A stretch of DNA of 64,000 bases from Rhodosporidiobolus odoratus. Its lineage: Eukaryota > Basidiomycota > Microbotryomycetes > Sporidiobolales > Sporidiobolaceae. Numbering within the stretch: position 1 is the first letter of the stretch; each line of letters begins with the position of its first letter. Location: NCBI GenBank assembly GCA_034387635.1, contig JAOANU010000003.1, forward strand, positions 1,302,001 to 1,366,000, in the 5' to 3' direction. The notes beneath the pieces are model-generated. The model searched no databases. It had not been told where the DNA came from and saw nothing but the letters and a program-made list of their open reading frames with translations. This document shows positions 28,468-64,000 of this stretch, one piece after another. A program made the translations under genes and the position numbers.

Positions 28468-30021
28468 CTACTCCTGAGTTACACGAAGAGCCGCCATGCT
28501 ATCCTTCCTCGTCTTCCAAGCGAGAACGGCGTCGAGAATGGCATTATGCGAAGCCACCTCGGCTTGAACAGCTAAGGTCTGCGCCGATACCACGTCTAGG
28601 TAGGTAAAGAGGACATTCCTCGTACGCTCGACTGTCAACTGCAACGGTTCGACGAGAGTGCAAAAATCGTCGCAGTTCTGGAGAAAGGGACCGAGGATGG
28701 CCTCGACCTCGTCTGGGCTAAGCGCGGTTGGCTCGCTCTTCGTCAAGAAGGGGGGAGTGAAGCGCTTGAAAAGTGACAGGACGGCTTTGCGAGTGACGGG
28801 TTGACGGATATGGCGTAGGCGGTGGAGGGGAAGTATATACATCGAGGCCACGCCGGCGAGCCATCGCGCGCTGCTTATGATCTGGCCCACTGCTTGTTGT
28901 ACCGCCTGCCACTCTTCCGTATCGGGTGCTCGCTGCAAGTAGGCGAGGTAATGCTCCAAATGGCTCGGCAAGGGTGTCAATACCGACCTCGTATACGTGG
29001 TACGACAGTATCGCTTGGCTGATTGCGAGACGAGGAATCGACTGTAGAGTGCAGAGGTTTGCTGCGGCTCTGCTTCGGCGTTCTGACAGAGAACAAGCCA
29101 TGGCGTCCGCAGGTTTGCGAGACGGCGAGCAAGCATCTCGTCAGACTCGAGGGGCAAGTTGAAGCGGTCGAGCGCCTGTAAGGATAACGAGAAACGACTG
29201 TCGGCTTTTTCGAACGAGAGAACGAGGTCGCGTAACCGGCGGGCGTGTAGTTTGGCGCTGTCTTGGGTCGACATACGTCAACGGGGAAACGAGAAGGATG
29301 CGAGGCAGCGCTTACGAGCTCTTCCCAGGCGAGATGAGGTCGCAGCAGATGAACGCCCAGCTGCCAACAAGCAAGAGAAGCGAGTAACTTGCGGCAATGT
29401 AGATGAGGAAGTTTAAGGCGGCGAAGATCCAGAATGCTGGGAACCAGGAAGGTGTCAGTGGTCGACCGAGACACCGTAGAAGGATAGGATTAGGCTCACG
29501 GAGGACGGCATAGAAAGTCCAAATAATGAACACCAGGCAGAAGCCCAGAGGGGCGGAGAAATAAAAAACGGGATAGCGAAAAACGCCTAGGTTTTCCAGG
29601 AAGTGCACGTCGAACACTTCCGGCGCATCTCCATTCAGGGGTAACTGAATAGTACAAGGCAATATCAGCAACGGCCAGAGACGCTATATGGACAGAGACG
29701 GACTATACTCAAGACAAAGACCAGACCGACGACGACGACCGTGACGGCGACGTTTGTGCGCCGCGTCCACGGCAGTGTCCTGGGCATCGAGGTCGACATC
29801 TGCCATATGCAGGACATCCCAAGCACCGGGTTGTACGGGTAAAAGTACCTGTCGAAGACGTGGGAGACGATAATGTCCAACTCGTCGCTGGCCTTGGTCG
29901 GGTAGATGATGGCGAACAGTTGTCGCGCGAGCGGTCTCGTAGCGCCAAACGTGCGCCTGAACCACCACGTCCAGGCGCCATTGTGTATATCGAGGATCCT
30001 TTTGAGGGATTCGCTGCTCAT
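28468..30021 (-). CDS. Unrecognised multi-pass membrane protein P1 (P-family)
   Basis: I do not recognise this gene from any named family. Three exons join. The N-terminal exon (from an ATG at 30021; MSSESLKRILDIHNGAWTWW) ends in a hydrophobic helix (VAVTVVVVGLVFVLSI). The middle exon has at least two membrane segments (YFSAPLGFCLVFIIWTFYAV; FWIFAALNFLIYIAASYSLL). An intron near 29251-29306 with an acag acceptor joins ISPGKS to AKLHARRL. The soluble C-terminal ~260 residues carry LAGVASMYILPLHRLR and end with the signature HNAILDAVLAWKTRK (28504-28548). Both blocks recur in the genes at 60651-62199 and 62609-64000. The donor of the first intron is not certain. Function unknown; no enzyme motif seen. 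Confidence 0.65.
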
Positions 30022-30414: not shown

Positions 30415-31518
30415 CTAGGCCGCCCAGAACCCCTTCTTCAACACGTATTCCATCCTGCTCGCCACAAACTGCGGCAGCTTGACCCTCTCGCCGCCCAAAT
30501 GTCCCGCAATCCTGACAGTTCCGATGCCCACCCCTGCGACCAGCGCAATCCAGCCCACCTGCCATTCCCTCCCCCGCGTCACCTTTTTGCGTAGAGATCC
30601 CTTCTCGCCTGCGCGTTTTCGTCGAGGCTTGAGGGACCGCGGCGCTGTCGGGTCGAGAAGGATCCGCCAACCGACGAGGCCGTGGTACGTCGTCAGCAGC
30701 GTGATGGCTGCATAGCTGAGGGCACTCATCGAACGGAGGAAGCGAGACTCGTGGTTGAGCGCGAGGGCAGAGTAGGAGTAGTTGAAGAAGGAGGGAGAGA
30801 GAGACGAGATGGGAGGGAAAGGGGATGAGGGGAGGATGCGGTGCGTGTAGAGGTGGTTGATGAGGGGGAAGATCAGGAGGTAGCCCGTCGCTTGGTGCAA
30901 GTTGGGTGGCTGGAGAATGGAGGAGGAAGCGGGTGCGTGAATGGCGGGCACGAGGAGTTCTTCGTCGTCCGTCGTAGTCGCGACAAGTTCCGCCTCAGTC
31001 TCCATGACCTCGTCTACGACGAAATCTTTCTCCGCCTCGCTCACCCTCTTCAGTCCTGGTCCAGTGGAAAAGACGCTGGCTTCGCTCGTGGCAGCCTGAC
31101 GAGCGAGTCGTTTAACCTCTTCCTTTCTGATTCTCCTCCGCTCGATGCGCTCGATGACGCCGATCCACCTGACGGCGATTCCGCTGACGATGTGAGTGGC
31201 CAGACTGCCGAAGACGAGAAGGGGTTCGCTCCATCTGCCTTGATAGACCTCTCGGGCGAGGAGTTGAACGCCGCTTGCACGGTTCTCGGGCGAGGAGATG
31301 TACTTTGGTCGACTGGGGAAGAGCGCGCTGAGTGGGCTTGCAAGGTGTAGGATGGTAAAGATGGTGAAGGTGGCACCTGAAGAGTTGCGGATGAAGCGAA
31401 GGAGAGGAAGTGTGGTCGAGGTGAATCGGAGGGTCAGCGTCGACGGGGATCGCTGTGGACTTGCTGAAGACATGCTGTCAGGGTAATAGCGAGGTGGCAA
31501 GCGGCGCGGGCTGCTCAT
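30415..31518 (-). CDS. Mcp1-like (DUF1691) membrane protein
   Basis: Single-exon gene of 367 codons. The pattern matches what I know of DUF1691 proteins such as yeast Mcp1, a mitochondrial outer-membrane protein tied to lipid exchange at vacuole contacts: RFIRNSSGATFTIFTILHLA, LLAREVYQGRWSEPLLVFGS, LATHIVSGIAVRW, then a charged linker, HQATGYLLIFPLINHLYTHR, YAAITLLTTYHGLVGWRILL and a last membrane helix WIALVAGVGIGTVRIAG. About five membrane segments are visible. A second in-frame ATG 15 codons in (near 31473) is a possible alternative start. The ~75-residue acidic linker between halves is longer than I would expect. No targeting presequence is obvious, consistent with an outer-membrane protein. 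Confidence 0.72.
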   Translation of the reverse strand: MSSPRRLPPRYYPDSMSSASPQRSPSTLTLRFTSTTLPLLRFIRNSSGATFTIFTILHLASPLSALFPSRPKYISSPENRASGVQLLAREVYQGRWSEPLLVFGSLATHIVSGIAVRWIGVIERIERRRIRKEEVKRLARQAATSEASVFSTGPGLKRVSEAEKDFVVDEVMETEAELVATTTDDEELLVPAIHAPASSSILQPPNLHQATGYLLIFPLINHLYTHRILPSSPFPPISSLSPSFFNYSYSALALNHESRFLRSMSALSYAAITLLTTYHGLVGWRILLDPTAPRSLKPRRKRAGEKGSLRKKVTRGREWQVGWIALVAGVGIGTVRIAGHLGGERVKLPQFVASRMEYVLKKGFWAA

Positions 31519-31698: not shown

Positions 31699-34606
31699 TC
31701 ACACCGCGACAGAATGTCTTCGTCCTTCTGCAGCCGTGGATACCGTTTTCCCGCTCAACGCCCCATCCTTCTGCGCCATCCTCTGCCTCCGCCGTTCCTC
31801 AAGGTCCTGCCCAGCTTTTGAGCTCGCAGCAGCCGATTGCCTGGAAGACGACGAAGAACCAGGTCGACGAAGGAATTGCTTCTCGCTCCATTCGTCCTCG
31901 GAGCTTGTCTCCTCATTCTGGTGTCGCAGCTGTGACTCTTCTTCCTCCTCATCGCTCGTGATAGGAGAGGATAGTACTGCGCTTCGCCGTGCGCTGGACG
32001 TAGTGGATTGCTGATGTGCGCTGCTCGAAGAAGCGGAGGACGAGGATGAAAGCGGTTTCTTGCCAGCGAGTGAAGCTGGCATTCTTGGCGGCATGGAAGA
32101 GGTCGAGGTTGGCGCGGAGGAAGAGTGTGGGGGGTCTTGAGATGACGAGGAGGAAGAAGGCGCCTTGGTGGATTTGCGAGGTTTGGTCGAGGAAGATGAG
32201 TTAGTCGATGCAACGCTGGTGACCGGGACGTAGCCGGCGGGACGGCGCATCTTCCTGTGATACGGACGAGAGTCAGCGCTAGAGGAGGACAGCTGATTGG
32301 ACAGGACGAACGTGTTAAGCTTTGGCAAAGCATAGTTGACTGATTTTCGCGCCCTTCTTCCTGTCTCCTCCAACGCCGACCCTTGCGAGTCAGTGGGCTC
32401 GTGGTCTATGCGTAGCAGTCGTGCAAGAGTCAGTACCTTGTCTCACTCGGTGATAGTGGTGTAGAGAGGCTTTGAACGACGAACCTTCAGCACCTCCCTC
32501 CTCGCTTAGTACCTCCATCTCCTCCACCCTCCTTCCCTTCCCCCGCGCCGTCTCCCCCGTCAGCGTCTCCTGCGAAATCCTTGCCTTCCCCTTCCTCTCC
32601 CTCGGCAGCTCCTCGGCTCGCTCTTCCTCCTCCTGTTCGACCTCCATCTCACCCTCAAGATCCGTCGCAGGTTCAGCCACGTTTTCGAGCTCGACTTCCG
32701 GTTCGGGTTCGGGTTCCGCACTCGCTGCTCGCCTTGATCGCACTGCGTCCTTCTTCGCTTCGAGTAAAGCCGCTGCAGAAGACCTTGAGGTCGGAATCGT
32801 AGTCGTAATCGAAGTCACCTCTTCAACCTCCACCGTATCGACCTCCACTTCCTCCTCGATCTCGACCTGTGGCTCGGGCTCTGGTAGAGGAAGTACCGTT
32901 GTCCGCCTTCGAGGTCGAGAGGACGAAGATTTCGCCTTTTCCGGCTGGAGGAAGAGGTCGTGGAGTTTCGCCTCAGGCGGTGCTTGGATTTCCCTAAGCG
33001 CCGATCGGGACGGGAACTCTTCCGTCACGTCTTCATGAGCGAGGGCTGAGGCAGCCTTAGTAGTTCGATGCGATCGGGTTGCCGAGCTTGAGAGGTTGGA
33101 GGAAGAGGTGGAGGAACAGGTGGTAGATGCCCGACCCTTGCCCTTTGTTCGACTAGCGACAGTGGGCGGGACATACTCCTCCTCCCCCTCGCTCTCCTCC
33201 CCTCGCCTCTGCTGCTCAACCTCACCAACCTCTTCCTCTTCCGCAGGCGAATCGAGCGCTTCCTGCTCACTCGCACCCGCACCAGAAGCGGACATGAGTG
33301 GTCGAAGCAATCCACTAATCCGTCGCGCAGGTTTGTGCGAGCGAGATGCAGAAGCTGAAGTAGAAGAGGACGAGGCGGAAGTGGATAGTTCCTCGTGAGA
33401 CTTGGCGGAACGGGCTTTCGGGGGTTGTTTGGGGGCGCGCGCAGGGCGGGAGGTGGAAGATGCGACGGAAGTGGGCCGAGGTGCGGGGCCTGGCGGCGGA
33501 GAGGGTGGTGGAGGAGTTGGAGAAGGGGAGCGGCGAGTAGTACGAGAGCTGAAGGTGGAGGAGGACGAGGCGGCGGACGGAAGAGGAAGGGGCAGTTGTT
33601 CCACTCTGTCGAAAACGGGCAAGTTAGATTTGCGAGGGGTCGGGTAAGGATAGCAAGAAGAAATCGTACTGCTGCAGTTCGGGCTCTCTCCAGCCGTCCT
33701 CTGACCCTGGCACCGGCTCCTCAAAGCTCCCGTCGCCTTCGCTGATATTGCTCAAATCTGGCTGAGCTGCCATCGATGGCCTCGTCCCGGCGGCACGAGC
33801 GGCAAGCGACCGTCGATGTGAGAGTGAAATGTTGCTTTCGGTCGGCGCTTGTTCGGACTCAGTTGCAACGGATGAAGGAGGGGCGGGAGAAGGCGCGGGA
33901 GAAACTGCGAGGGAAGTTAATGAGCGGCGAGATCAACGGAGTGGAAGGTGAGAGGCATACCAGTAGTGGAGGTGGACGAAGAGAGGGAAGAGCTGAGCGA
34001 ACTGGATGCGGGCAGCATGAGCCCAAAGGCCTGCAGAGCTGCGACAGCGTTGGTGAGCGCTTGCCGCATGGCCTGCGAATCTTCCTGTTCGTGAGTAGGC
34101 GTCTTCCCGTCGCAGTTCCCGGACGAGAAACACGCACCTCGACCTGCTCCGCGTCCATGCCTCCGCCTCTCCGCCGTATCCGGTCGCGCTCCTCGAGCAA
34201 GCTTCTTTCCCTCACTTCCACCCTATCTAACCGATCCTTTAGCGCGCTGTTTTCGCACTCGAGCTGGAACTGAATGCCTTTTAGAGACAGTCGTTCGGCT
34301 CGCATGAGGGAGATCTGGCGTTGAAGGTCTGCATTGGCCCTGTCCGAAGAAAGTTGAGCGATAGAGGGAAGTAAGGACAGACGAAAGGGGACTCGCTTGT
34401 GGAGTTCGCTGTTCTTGTGGATAATTTCCTTGTTTTGTGCGAGGTGTTTCCGCTTGACTGCAAGGGAACAAAGTGAGGTTTAGTGGTGATTGCACTGGTG
34501 GGGAGATTGGAAACAGAGTTGGCTGACAAGCTTCATACGTTTCCAGCATGAGGGAAGTGGCCTGATGACCTCCCTGGGCAGTAGACTGCCTCCTAGTAGC
34601 AGTCAT
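31699..34606 (-). CDS. SGO1: Shugoshin (Sgo1)
   Basis: Shugoshin protects centromeric cohesin by recruiting PP2A and senses tension. The N-terminus (MTATRRQST, residues 1-9) leads to a coiled coil LETYEAFKRKHLAQNKEII then HKNSELHKRANADLQRQIS, the dimer/PP2A-binding region. A donor GTCAGC at the end of exon 1 is the one that keeps the coiled-coil frame. The middle ~600 residues are Ser/Glu/Pro-rich disorder. The conserved C-terminal SGO motif is GRRARKSVNYALPKLNTKMR, split by an intron near 32257-32315. The C-terminal tail is very Ser-rich and ends RRHSVAV. An in-frame ATG at 34687 would add 27 residues but overlaps the neighbouring gene's start; 34606 gives the family-like MxxxRRQS end and is preferred. 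Confidence 0.87.
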
Positions 34607-60650: not shown

Positions 60651-62199
60651 TCAGTCCTGCTTGAAGCGCTGAAGAAGCCGGTCTTTCTTCCGCTCCTTCC
60701 ACGCGAGAACCGCGTCAAGAATGGCATAGTGCGCGGTTTTCTCGGCGGCGACGGCGGCGCTGAGCGCTGCTTGAGCCGGGAGAAGCGCCTCAAGGTACTT
60801 GCAGAGGTCGTCGACGGGGACACCGGCATGAAGGAGAAATAGGGCTGCCGAAACGAGTGGGAAAGGACTTTGCAAGTCGGCCTCGACGACTGACGATAGG
60901 GATGAGGGGTCGAAGGAAGGTGTATGGAGCTGTTTATAAAGGAAGCCGGGGTAAGACAGGAGTAAAGGTAGTAGCGCTGCAAGGCGAAAGGGCCGGCGGG
61001 TGTGCTGCAAGGATAGGTAGGGGAAGATGTAGGCCTCGAGGATGCCGGCAAGCTCGTACACGACGTGCTGGAAGCTCGTAGCTTTCATGTCCGCGGCAGG
61101 AGGCCTTGAGTTCAAGTGATGGGCGATGGAAGTGGCTAAGCTGCCGAAGATACGATGGTACGAAAGCATGTACTCGTCAAGTCGAGCCACTGATGGCAGG
61201 TCAGCACTTGAAAGGTGCAGCAAGGTCTGAAGCTTCGAGAGGTCTGCGTTCGATGCCTGCAAGAGTTGCTGAATTGCCTTCTCGAAGGAGGGTAACCACA
61301 ATGGCGGGGCGAGGAGCGGCTCGATGGCGTTAGAGCGAGCCATGACTAGCAGATGCTCCAGGTGCGTGTACTTCTCGTGGGTCTCGTTCTGTTGTCGAGC
61401 GACTTGACGAAGTGGGCGCCATTCCGAGTCGTTTCTGGACAGCAGCTCGTCCGTAGGTCAGCCCTGCGGTAACAGAAAGCGATGAGATTTCCCCTACCTG
61501 TGTCGAATGCGCCAGCGCGGCCAAAGCGAATCCAGCAGATCGCGGTAGACGATAGCCCACGTGGCCGCGAGGAACGTCAAGAAGGAGACGGCCCACAGAA
61601 GGCACGCGACATATAGTACCGGCTCGGCGACGACAAGGAGGAGAAGAAAGAGGGAGACTGCGGCAAGTAAAGTGAGGCGCTGAAGGTCGGCGAGTGGCGA
61701 AAGGCGCACCGAGGGGGATGACAACCGCTGCAGTGATCGCGAACATTGTCGCAGCGAGATATCCGATCAAAGGACGGACGAGTCTAAAGGAGAATACGAA
61801 CGAGACAGCGGAATGATACAGTGTCAAGGCGCTTGGAGGTACCAAGCGGAGGATCTGGTCGCCCAATAACGCCTCAGCTACTGCACGAGCCGGGACAAAT
61901 GCTGTCAGTAGCCTCACTCTGGACAAAAGGGCAAGGGACAACGAACCGATGGAGCAATCCTGCGCGAGGTGGACAAAGGTGCTGACCCAGAGAGCGCGCG
62001 CAACCCAGCCTTGGCGCAACAGTCGCGCATATTGCTGGTTGCGCGCCCACGAGGGCGAAGTGTGCGCGATGATTTTGAGCATATCAAGGAAGAAGCGGAC
62101 GTGCATGCGGTAGGACGGTGCGACTGTGCTCTCGAACAGCTCTTTGCGGAACATCTGTATCGTTTCCAACCACCACTTGACGGCGACAAAGGCGTGCAT
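60651..62199 (-). CDS. Unrecognised multi-pass membrane protein P2 (P-family)
   Basis: Paralog of P1 and P3; no named family recognised. From the first in-frame ATG (62199; MHAFVAVKWWLETIQMF), exons join at introns near 61880-61944, 61712-61762 and 61451-61500. They give hydrophobic segments (LVRPLIGYLAATMFAITAAV; LFLLLLVVAEPVLYVACLLW; AVSFLTFLAATWAIVYRDLL), then RWRIRHRNDSEWRPLRQVAR and a soluble C-terminal ~270 residues. That part has YELAGILEAYIFPYLSLQ and ends with the signature HYAILDAVLAWKERK (60686-60730). The frame upstream of the ATG stays open without an ATG to 62490, so an upstream exon is likely and the N-terminus is uncertain. P3 lies 410 bp upstream on the same strand. Function unknown. 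Confidence 0.66.
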
Positions 62200-62608: not shown

Positions 62609-64000
62609 CTACTCCTTCAGATACCGCCTCAGTAGGATCTTCCTCTCTTTCCACCTTAAGACCGCGTCCAGCACTGCCCGATGAGCCTCCGTCTCCGCCT
62701 TGACCGCCCGTTCCAGCGCAAGCACTTGCTGCAAGTACGTCCCAAGTACCTCTGCCGCGTCAATCGATGCGATCCGGGCCTCCTGGGCCGTAAGGAGGAA
62801 AGGCGGCAAGGCATCGAGAAAATCGGAAAAGGCGCTTTGTTGTGGTGGGTCGGGAGAGGGTGCATCTGCAGGGTCATAGAAGCGGTTGGCGGGATTGAGG
62901 AGGTACCGCATCAAGTACGGGGTGAGGAAGAGGTGGCCGAGAAGATGACGGCGAGGCGGGAGGGATAGGTATCGGAGTGGGCGGAAAGGGATGTAGTAGA
63001 TCACTGCTCCAGCGAGTTGGTATGTGACAGACAGGAAAGATGCATCTTGAGTGTACGAAGGTCGGCTGGCGTAGGTCGAGTCTAGGAGGCCTCGTACTCG
63101 GCGGAAGGTTGCGGCGAGCAGTTTTGCATCGATACCCTTTAAGCGAGCGTCTTCGGCAGGGCGGTAGCCTCGGGTAGACGAGTCGATGAAGTCGAGGGAG
63201 CGGCAAACCTGCAGCAGCTCTTCGTCGGACAAGTTCGACAGTCTCAACCATGGCGTGTCGAGGCCCTGAAGATCCGATTCGACATCGAACAAGTCGGCCT
63301 CTTGCCTGGCGGCCTGGAAGTGACGCTTTCGTTCATGTACCGCATAGGCATTGCCGAGCTGGCGGCGTGCTAGGTCGCGGAAGTCAAGTAGGGCTTGAGT
63401 CGAGCTGTGCCAAGCAGCAGTTTCAGCGCCGAGAACATGCAGGGTCGTTGCGGAGGAAGTGGGGCGCACGTCGTCGGGGCAAAGCAGTAGTGTAGCGAGT
63501 TTCGCATCGTCTCGTAGCCCAGCACGCCGACCGTGGCAGCGGTAAAGGCGGTAAGGGAAAGAGGGAGAACGACGACACCAAGCACGGCGGCGGGAATGGC
63601 TATAGGAGACTTCACGTAGTTACGGCGGTCGTCGCAAAATGATACAAAGCTGTGTACGTACCTAGAGGTGCCATTGGTGCCAGCGCCGGAAGGGCTCGAA
63701 GAAGCGTGACATAGACAATGGCTTGCCAAAGGCTGCGCACTACGACATAGCGAGCACCTTTCGGGTCTTGTCCGAAGCCAGGTAGCCGGAATAGATGTGC
63801 GGGAAGGATAACGTCGGCGAGAGCATCGATTCCTGTACGGCAACTCGCGATTATCAGCAGAAAGTGGGGAAAGGAAGATCATGAGGCGTACCAGGCAGGA
63901 CGCAGCCAGCTCTGACAACCAGCACTCCGAGCACGACCCACGTCGACCTGCTCCAGCGCTGTGCCCTCCATCTCCTCCAAAACAACCTCGCACCGACCCA
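62609..64000 (-). CDS. Unrecognised membrane protein P3 (P-family), N-terminus outside window
   Basis: Third member of the P-family; the coding frame is open to base 64000, so its start is beyond the window. Exons join at introns near 63841-63888, 63602-63662 and 63408-63472. They give WSRSTWVVLGVLVVRAGCVL, GIDALADVILPAHLFRLPGF, VVVRSLWQAIVYVTLLRALP and AAVLGVVVLPLSLTAFTAAT (membrane segments). Then STQALLDFRDLARRQLGNAY opens a ~280-residue soluble region with YQLAGAVIYYIPFRPLRYLS and the C-terminal signature HRAVLDAVLRWKERK (62639-62683), ending LLRRYLKE. The layout equals that of P2, 410 bp downstream on the same strand, so the pair looks like an old tandem duplication. Function unknown. 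Confidence 0.66.

What the first reader, a model, noticed from the sequence alone, without database searches (positions are those of the whole stretch)
28468..30021. P1: an isolated copy of an unnamed membrane-protein family with a C-terminal LDAVLxWKxRK signature
P1, P2 and P3 share two blocks in the same order: LAGxxxxYI plus a Pro/Arg-rich segment, then HxAxLDAVLxWKxRK about 15 residues before the stop. The rest is widely diverged. Each has several hydrophobic helices before a soluble, helical C-terminal region. I know no family with this signature. Conservation of a short C-terminal helix amid divergence suggests a binding or assembly surface. P1 lies 30 kb from the other two.
Basis: partly seen in the sequence, partly recalled or inferred. 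Interest (0 to 1): 0.75.

Follow-up and report, generated by a model that had tools for sequence, protein, structure and literature searches.

The report
Unnamed fast-evolving red-yeast membrane protein family
The gene is real and belongs to a small, fast-changing family of yeast proteins, several of them clearly membrane proteins, that matched no named protein family in the libraries searched; what the family does is still unknown.

Summary
P1 is a four-exon, 457-aa gene (window 30021-28468, minus strand), 440/457 identical without gaps to a deposited Rhodosporidiobolus odoratus 'hypothetical protein'; the window comes from that red yeast or a near relative. P1, P2 and P3 are homologous: their C-terminal exons find each other genome-wide at E 6.5e-10 to 2.6e-8. 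I found five members: P5, P1, P2, P3, all minus strand, within 79 kb of one contig, and P4 on another. All five models, two of them backed by deposited proteins, have a phase-2 intron where the hydrophobic half meets the soluble half. P3's R. nylandii relative shares 213 of 448 residues, under the 65-88% average between species of one genus (PMC12093110): the family evolves fast. No Pfam or PDB match is significant. AlphaFold gave no usable fold (pLDDT 43 and 38). A link to FUSC/BRE4 exporters was tested and not supported. Most likely these are membrane-anchored helical proteins whose last helix packs in the domain or between copies; that mechanism is inferred. Whether the family reaches beyond Rhodosporidiobolus is open: the protein search demonstrably loses paralogues.

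The parts
28468..30021 (-). P1 gene, 457 aa; exons 30021-29704, 29644-29500, 29436-29316, 29257-28468 (stop included)
   Evidence: model; 440/457 identical, ungapped, to P0001
28834..28860 (-). P1 LAGxxxxYI block
   Evidence: aligned with P2 and P3
28504..28548 (-). P1 C-terminal block HNAILDAVLAWKTRK
29258..29315 (-). P1 phase-2 intron at the hydrophobic/soluble junction; all five models have a phase-2 intron there
60651..62199 (-). P2 gene, 455 aa; exons 62199-61947, 61880-61780, 61727-61498, 61434-60651; model by eye
   Evidence: E 3.6e-9 to P1 and 6.5e-10 to P3
61026..61052 (-). P2 LAGxxxxYI block
60687..60731 (-). P2 C-terminal block HYAILDAVLAWKERK
62609..64000 (-). P3 gene, 448 aa, first exon runs past the window end to 64141; exons 64141-63892, 63832-63662, 63599-63470, 63404-62609
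   Evidence: model; 437/448 identical to P0002 of R. odoratus and 213/448 to P0003 of R. nylandii
62990..63016 (-). P3 LAGxxxxYI block
62639..62683 (-). P3 C-terminal block HRAVLDAVLRWKERK

Best explanation
P1 is a member of a small, rapidly diverging protein family of Rhodosporidiobolus red yeasts, spread by old duplication (four genes on one strand within 79 kb, one on another contig). SHOWN by sequence: homology of five members; a common two-part gene structure; complete open models for P1-P4; P1 and P3 kept at full length in the R. odoratus record, and a P3 relative of 445 aa in R. nylandii. INFERRED: the N-terminal half holds hydrophobic helices that anchor the protein in a membrane (clear in P1-P3, weak in P4); the C-terminal ~260 residues form a helical soluble domain; its last helix, with E, L-D, L and W invariant in 6 of 6 sequences and alanines gathered on one side, packs inside the domain or against a partner copy, so that the protein acts as a membrane-anchored scaffold or adaptor.
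For: Genome-wide mutual hits of P1, P2, P3. A profile of four C-terminal sequences finds P4 at E 5.3e-10 and the two P5 exons at 2.1e-7 and 0.0032 among 2656 six-frame ORFs of chosen stretches; P4 and a hand-spliced P5 score 36.8 bits each, against at most 6.6 bits in 1000 shuffles. Phase-2 intron at the hydrophobic/soluble junction in 5 of 5 models. Hydrophobic segments and the residue pattern of the last helix. Helical secondary structure in both low-confidence models. Named relatives in R. odoratus and R. nylandii.
Against: Nothing shows localisation, partner or activity. Both structure models are unusable. P4 has little hydrophobic character. Between P3 and its R. nylandii relative the C-terminal helix is not the most conserved part. 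Near-identity with the R. odoratus record may be within one species, so it says little about selection. Invariant polar residues (E, D) in the last helix are also compatible with an active or ligand site, which was not tested. No R. odoratus relative of P2, P4 or P5 was seen.
Confidence: 0.4

Rival explanations
1. The family is a known, widely spread fungal family that has diverged so far here that sequence searches with few members miss it.
For: Fast divergence (213 of 448 identical within the genus). Pfam was scanned with single proteins, and the PDB profile had six rows, some of them near duplicates. The P2-region protein search missed P0001, which would score E 1.7e-4 at that database size; only the 7996 candidates sharing most words were scored.
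Against: Lowest Pfam E-value for any member scanned is 0.041, under its cut-off (the N-terminal half of P4 and part of P5 were not scanned); no PDB hit at E<=1 with the larger profile.
Confidence: 0.3
2. The proteins are half-length, highly diverged relatives of the FUSC/ArAE-BRE4 (or plant ALMT-like) transporters: a hydrophobic bundle followed by a helical soluble domain.
For: General layout; a non-significant Pfam FUSC_2 hit to the R. nylandii protein, residues 142-219, E 4, 8 bits; a loose visual resemblance between the LAG/PPRR block and the PLPPYLPPAAEAR block of a BRE4-like gene of the same genome.
Against: FUSC_2 far under its cut-off of 25.6 bits; own-genome searches with the FUSC_2 and BRE4 profiles list other genes and none of the five; profile-profile comparison gave probabilities of 0.4% and 0.2% and 0.8% for a longer hand-joined sequence, with 0.1% for an unrelated membrane-protein control.
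Confidence: 0.1
3. The genes are decaying or dispensable copies under relaxed selection, with the shared blocks as residue.
For: Low identity among paralogues and between P3 and its R. nylandii relative; the 5' end of P5 is unresolved, with an in-frame stop in its first candidate exon.
Against: P1-P4 give complete models without internal stops; P1 and P3 keep full length without gaps in the R. odoratus record, with 17 and 11 substitutions; the P3 relative of R. nylandii has 445 aa.
Confidence: 0.07

Closest known systems
Rhodosporidiobolus odoratus hypothetical proteins JCM11641_000308 (P0001) and JCM11641_000293 (P0002); R. nylandii hypothetical protein JCM10213_005591 (P0003)
   Same: Relatives of P1 (440/457 identical) and P3 (437/448 and 213/448 identical), nearly the same length, same blocks; probably orthologues
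   Different: Annotated only as hypothetical; no function or family name
FUSC_2 / BRE4 (PF13515, PF10334) aromatic-acid-exporter-like proteins
   Same: Hydrophobic block followed by a soluble domain (resemblance only)
   Different: No significant sequence or profile similarity
Plant ALMT channels (recalled; not tested by structure)
   Same: Layout: N-terminal transmembrane bundle, C-terminal helical domain
   Different: No ALMT chain among the PDB sequence matches; folds could not be compared because the models are poor

Membership tests
The P family (defined here) | Two ordered blocks: LAG(x4)YI-like plus Pro/Arg segment, then [IV]LD[AE]xLxWxxR-like near the C-terminus | tested here: met
   P1-P3 have both; R. 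nylandii protein has LAGAILCYL and ILDETLRWKNR; P5 has IAGMVIKYL and ILDAMLRWQEK; P4 clearly has only the second block
The P family (defined here) | Phase-2 intron at the hydrophobic/soluble boundary | tested here: met
   5 of 5 models; models made by eye, only those of P1 and P3 agree with deposited proteins, and P5 is partial
The P family (defined here) | Several hydrophobic helices before the soluble half | tested here: inconclusive
   Clear in P1, P2, P3; weak in P4; N-terminus of P5 unresolved
FUSC_2 / BRE4 exporter-like proteins | Pfam profile match over the cut-off | tested here: not met
   Best FUSC_2 8 bits against 25.6; no BRE4 hit in hmmscan; none of the five loci in own-genome searches
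FUSC_2 / BRE4 exporter-like proteins | Profile-profile similarity to BRE4-like genes of the same genome | tested here: not met
   hhalign probabilities 0.2-0.8%; a weak test, because the BRE4-like sequences were few and joined by hand
FUSC/ALMT fold | Six-helix membrane bundle fold | tested here: inconclusive
   Two AlphaFold jobs, mean pLDDT 43.1 and 38.3; no fold search was made on them
Any Pfam-A family | Match over the curated cut-off | tested here: not met
   Searches (4 exons; 6 members; 5 proteins): none over a cut-off; the N-terminal half of P4 and part of P5 were not scanned

The most novel reading that the evidence does not exclude
A protein family born within the Sporidiobolales, with a fold of its own, that multiplied in a loose 79-kb cluster and evolves fast, perhaps as membrane scaffolds for a trait special to these yeasts.
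Probability: 0.3. Interest if true: 0.55.

Novelty: new member of a known kind. Interest (0 to 1): 0.35.

Why it matters
It turns three anonymous reading frames into a defined family with gene models, a signature, five members in one genome and a common intron, and ties together records now called 'hypothetical protein' in R. odoratus and R. nylandii. Fast-diverging, possibly lineage-restricted membrane proteins are common in fungi and seldom studied (general knowledge); this one offers a test handle, a short C-terminal helix with five invariant residues.

Tried and rejected
Known families: Pfam scans of exons, relatives and parts of P4/P5 gave nothing over a cut-off. PDB sequence search: best E 0.24, a bacterial photoreceptor kinase, judged chance; none at E<=1 with the larger profile.

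FUSC/BRE4 idea: raised by a FUSC_2 hit at E 4; tested and not supported.

Mating-type linkage: the STE3 receptor match lies on contig C17, not C3, so no link is seen at contig level; the homeodomain locus was not searched.

More copies: of 8 genome matches to the DNA signature (1 for the reversed control), 5 are the family members; the other three (C5:786668, C6:69885, C23:234446) were judged chance after reading their frames. C6:811699 (E 0.0024 with the R. nylandii protein) lies in a gene that I read, from memory of the motif, as a Zn2Cys6 regulator and scores 0.5 bits at best with the profile: rejected, and a warning about single-query E-values of that size. C5:1277159 (E 0.29): no ORF of that locus scores above 4.5 bits, and that one lies elsewhere in the locus: rejected. 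Results that weaken P4 and P5: the P1 exon finds neither at E<=10; P3 and the R. nylandii protein find P4 but not P5; the P5 exon that carries the signature, used alone, finds only itself.

Origins elsewhere: no relative confirmed in the GTDB genome collection (one pattern, 41 matches, none confirmed by tblastn) or in IMG/VR (two patterns, 75 matches, none confirmed). Both scans need an exact match to the pattern first.

Protein searches: profile of P1-P3; 1 hit; only the 7996 candidates sharing most words were scored; P2 region; 4620 candidates, none at E<=10; P3 region; 1632 candidates, 2 hits. One search also missed P0001, which scores E 1.7e-4 at that database size, so its silence is weak.

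Structure: both AlphaFold jobs unusable; no fold search was run, because low-confidence models give meaningless matches.

Literature: searches (4 papers, all listed; 21 papers, 15 listed; 1,059 papers, 15 listed) showed nothing that I recognised as describing this family; one search returned none. I saw titles and starts of abstracts; of PMC12093110 also passages found by search terms. No paper was read whole.

Full report
WHERE THE WINDOW LIES. The window is C3:1302001-1366000 of a 24.8-Mb, 45-contig genome. P1's closest protein is 'hypothetical protein JCM11641_000308 [Rhodosporidiobolus odoratus]' (P0001), identical at 440 of 457 positions without gaps. P3's closest is JCM11641_000293 of the same species (P0002), identical at 437 of 448. 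A genome study of the order gives average amino-acid identities of about 88-100% within species and 65-88% between species of one genus (PMC12093110, passages seen). Judged from two proteins, the organism is R. odoratus or something very close to it.

GENE MODELS. P1 has four exons (30021-29704, 29644-29500, 29436-29316, 29257-28468) and 457 aa; P2 has four exons and 455 aa; P3 has four exons and 448 aa and reaches past the window end to 64141. My first P1 model (478 aa) lacked one intron; the R. odoratus protein and good splice signals show it. The P1 and P3 models agree with deposited proteins; those of P2, P4 and P5 are by eye, and P5 is partial.

THE BLOCKS ARE REAL AND NOT CHANCE. A regex scan of six frames finds LDAVLxWK three times and LAGxxxxYI three times in the window, all in these genes and in the same order. 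With one C-terminal exon as query against the whole genome: P1 finds P2 at 3.0e-9 and P3 at 2.6e-8; P2 finds P3 at 6.5e-10 and P1 at 3.6e-9; P3 finds P2 at 2.2e-9 and P1 at 2.2e-8.

MORE MEMBERS. P2 and P3 both point weakly to C32:77.9 kb (E 0.15 and 0.020), which points back to P3 and P2 (0.012 and 0.079); the R. nylandii protein finds it at 3.3e-4. P2 points to C3:1287.3 kb (0.065), which points back to P2 (0.018). A degenerate DNA pattern for the C-terminal signature matches 8 places in the genome (1 for the reversed control), among them these two genes and P1-P3; the other three were judged chance. A profile of P1, P2, P3 and the R. nylandii protein gives C32 (P4) 5.3e-10 and the two exons at C3:1287 kb (P5) 2.1e-7 and 0.0032 among 2656 ORFs of the window and chosen loci; P4 and a hand-spliced P5 score 36.8 bits each, against at most 6.6 bits in 500 shuffles of each. 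The stretches were chosen partly because they had been hit, so these E-values hold for that set only. Against: the P1 exon finds neither P4 nor P5 at E<=10, P3 and the R. nylandii protein do not find P5, and P5's signature exon alone finds only itself. Single-query E-values near 0.002 are not safe here: C6:811699 reached 0.0024 and the profile does not support it.

COMMON GENE STRUCTURE. All five models have a phase-2 intron where the hydrophobic half meets the soluble half: after aa 194.67 (P1), 194.67 (P2), 183.67 (P3), 200.67 (P4) and 23.67 of the partial P5 model. P1 and P2 also share a phase-0 intron, and P1/P3 and P2/P3 each a phase-1 intron, at roughly matching places; these are less certain because the N-terminal halves align poorly.

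ARRANGEMENT. P5 (C3:1286988-1288012, partial), P1, P2 and P3 (to C3:1366141) lie on the minus strand within 79 kb; in C3:1285001-1376000 the profile finds no other ORF of 25 aa or more above its inclusion threshold. In R. odoratus the relatives of P3 and P1 carry locus tags 15 apart, and both report the same longest contig length of 283,643 bases, so the spacing is probably kept there. P4 is on contig C32.

RATE. P3 and its R. nylandii relative share 213 of 448 residues: 74 of 183 in the hydrophobic half, 39 of 56 in the LAG-to-NPANRF block, 19 of 35 in the C-terminal helix. That is under the range of 65-88% between species of one genus, though that range is an average over recognised orthologues and over several genera. 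In six sequences aligned by eye (P1-P5 and the R. nylandii protein), E, L, D, L and W of the last helix are invariant, and its commonest alanines fall within 220-300 degrees of a helical wheel.

WHAT IT IS NOT. No Pfam family over its cut-off in what was scanned; no significant PDB relative; no relative confirmed in the prokaryote genome collection or in IMG/VR. A transporter reading (FUSC/BRE4) was tested by profile scan, by family search of the genome and by profile-profile comparison and is not supported. AlphaFold with six sequences failed (mean pLDDT 43.1 for the P3 relative, 38.3 for the P1 relative); both models are helical throughout and end in a long helix, at this confidence only a hint.

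HOW IT MAY WORK. From sequence alone: P1-P3 have strongly hydrophobic segments in the first ~190 residues and a soluble remainder that is probably helical. The simplest reading is a membrane-anchored helical scaffold or adaptor whose last helix packs inside the domain or between copies. My odds: one family, about 0.97; membrane anchoring of P1-P3, about 0.85; scaffold or adaptor with an assembly helix, about 0.4. The invariant E and D of the helix would also fit a ligand or active site, which I could not test.

LIMITS. The one with the P2 region returned nothing, yet missed P0001, which would score 1.7e-4 there. The known distribution is therefore a lower bound: this genome and two named Rhodosporidiobolus species. 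I cannot say whether the family is restricted to the genus.

Noticed in passing
window 30415-31518 (-): ORF beside P1 with a Pfam MCP1_TM match (E 2.5e-7), so probably an MCP1-like membrane protein.
   Followed up: no
window 31702-32373 (-): ORF with a borderline Shugoshin C-terminus match (23.8 bits, cut-off 23.3).
   Followed up: no
L005:824-1268 (-), C3:1366.6-1367.1 kb: Exons just upstream of P3 that look like ribosomal protein uL13/RPL13A; named from memory, and a Pfam scan of one exon gave no hit.
   Followed up: partly
C3:1429.2-1430.3 kb (L040): A FUSC_2/BRE4-like gene about 63 kb beyond the window on the same contig and strand (FUSC_2 over its cut-off, BRE4 not).
   Followed up: partly
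C17:385349-386339 (-): STE3-type pheromone receptor match; the longer stretch contains three stop codons, probably introns.
   Followed up: no
window 29645-29703 (P1 intron 1) and 61728-61779 (P2 intron 2), both (-): Both introns appear to use the unusual donor GTCCGT at a phase-0 site; for P1 the deposited R. odoratus protein agrees with the junction.
   Followed up: partly
L028:3130-3216 (-): The candidate first exon of P5 ends in an in-frame stop right before a good donor (GTGCGT); another frame would fit, so the 5' end is unresolved.
   Followed up: partly
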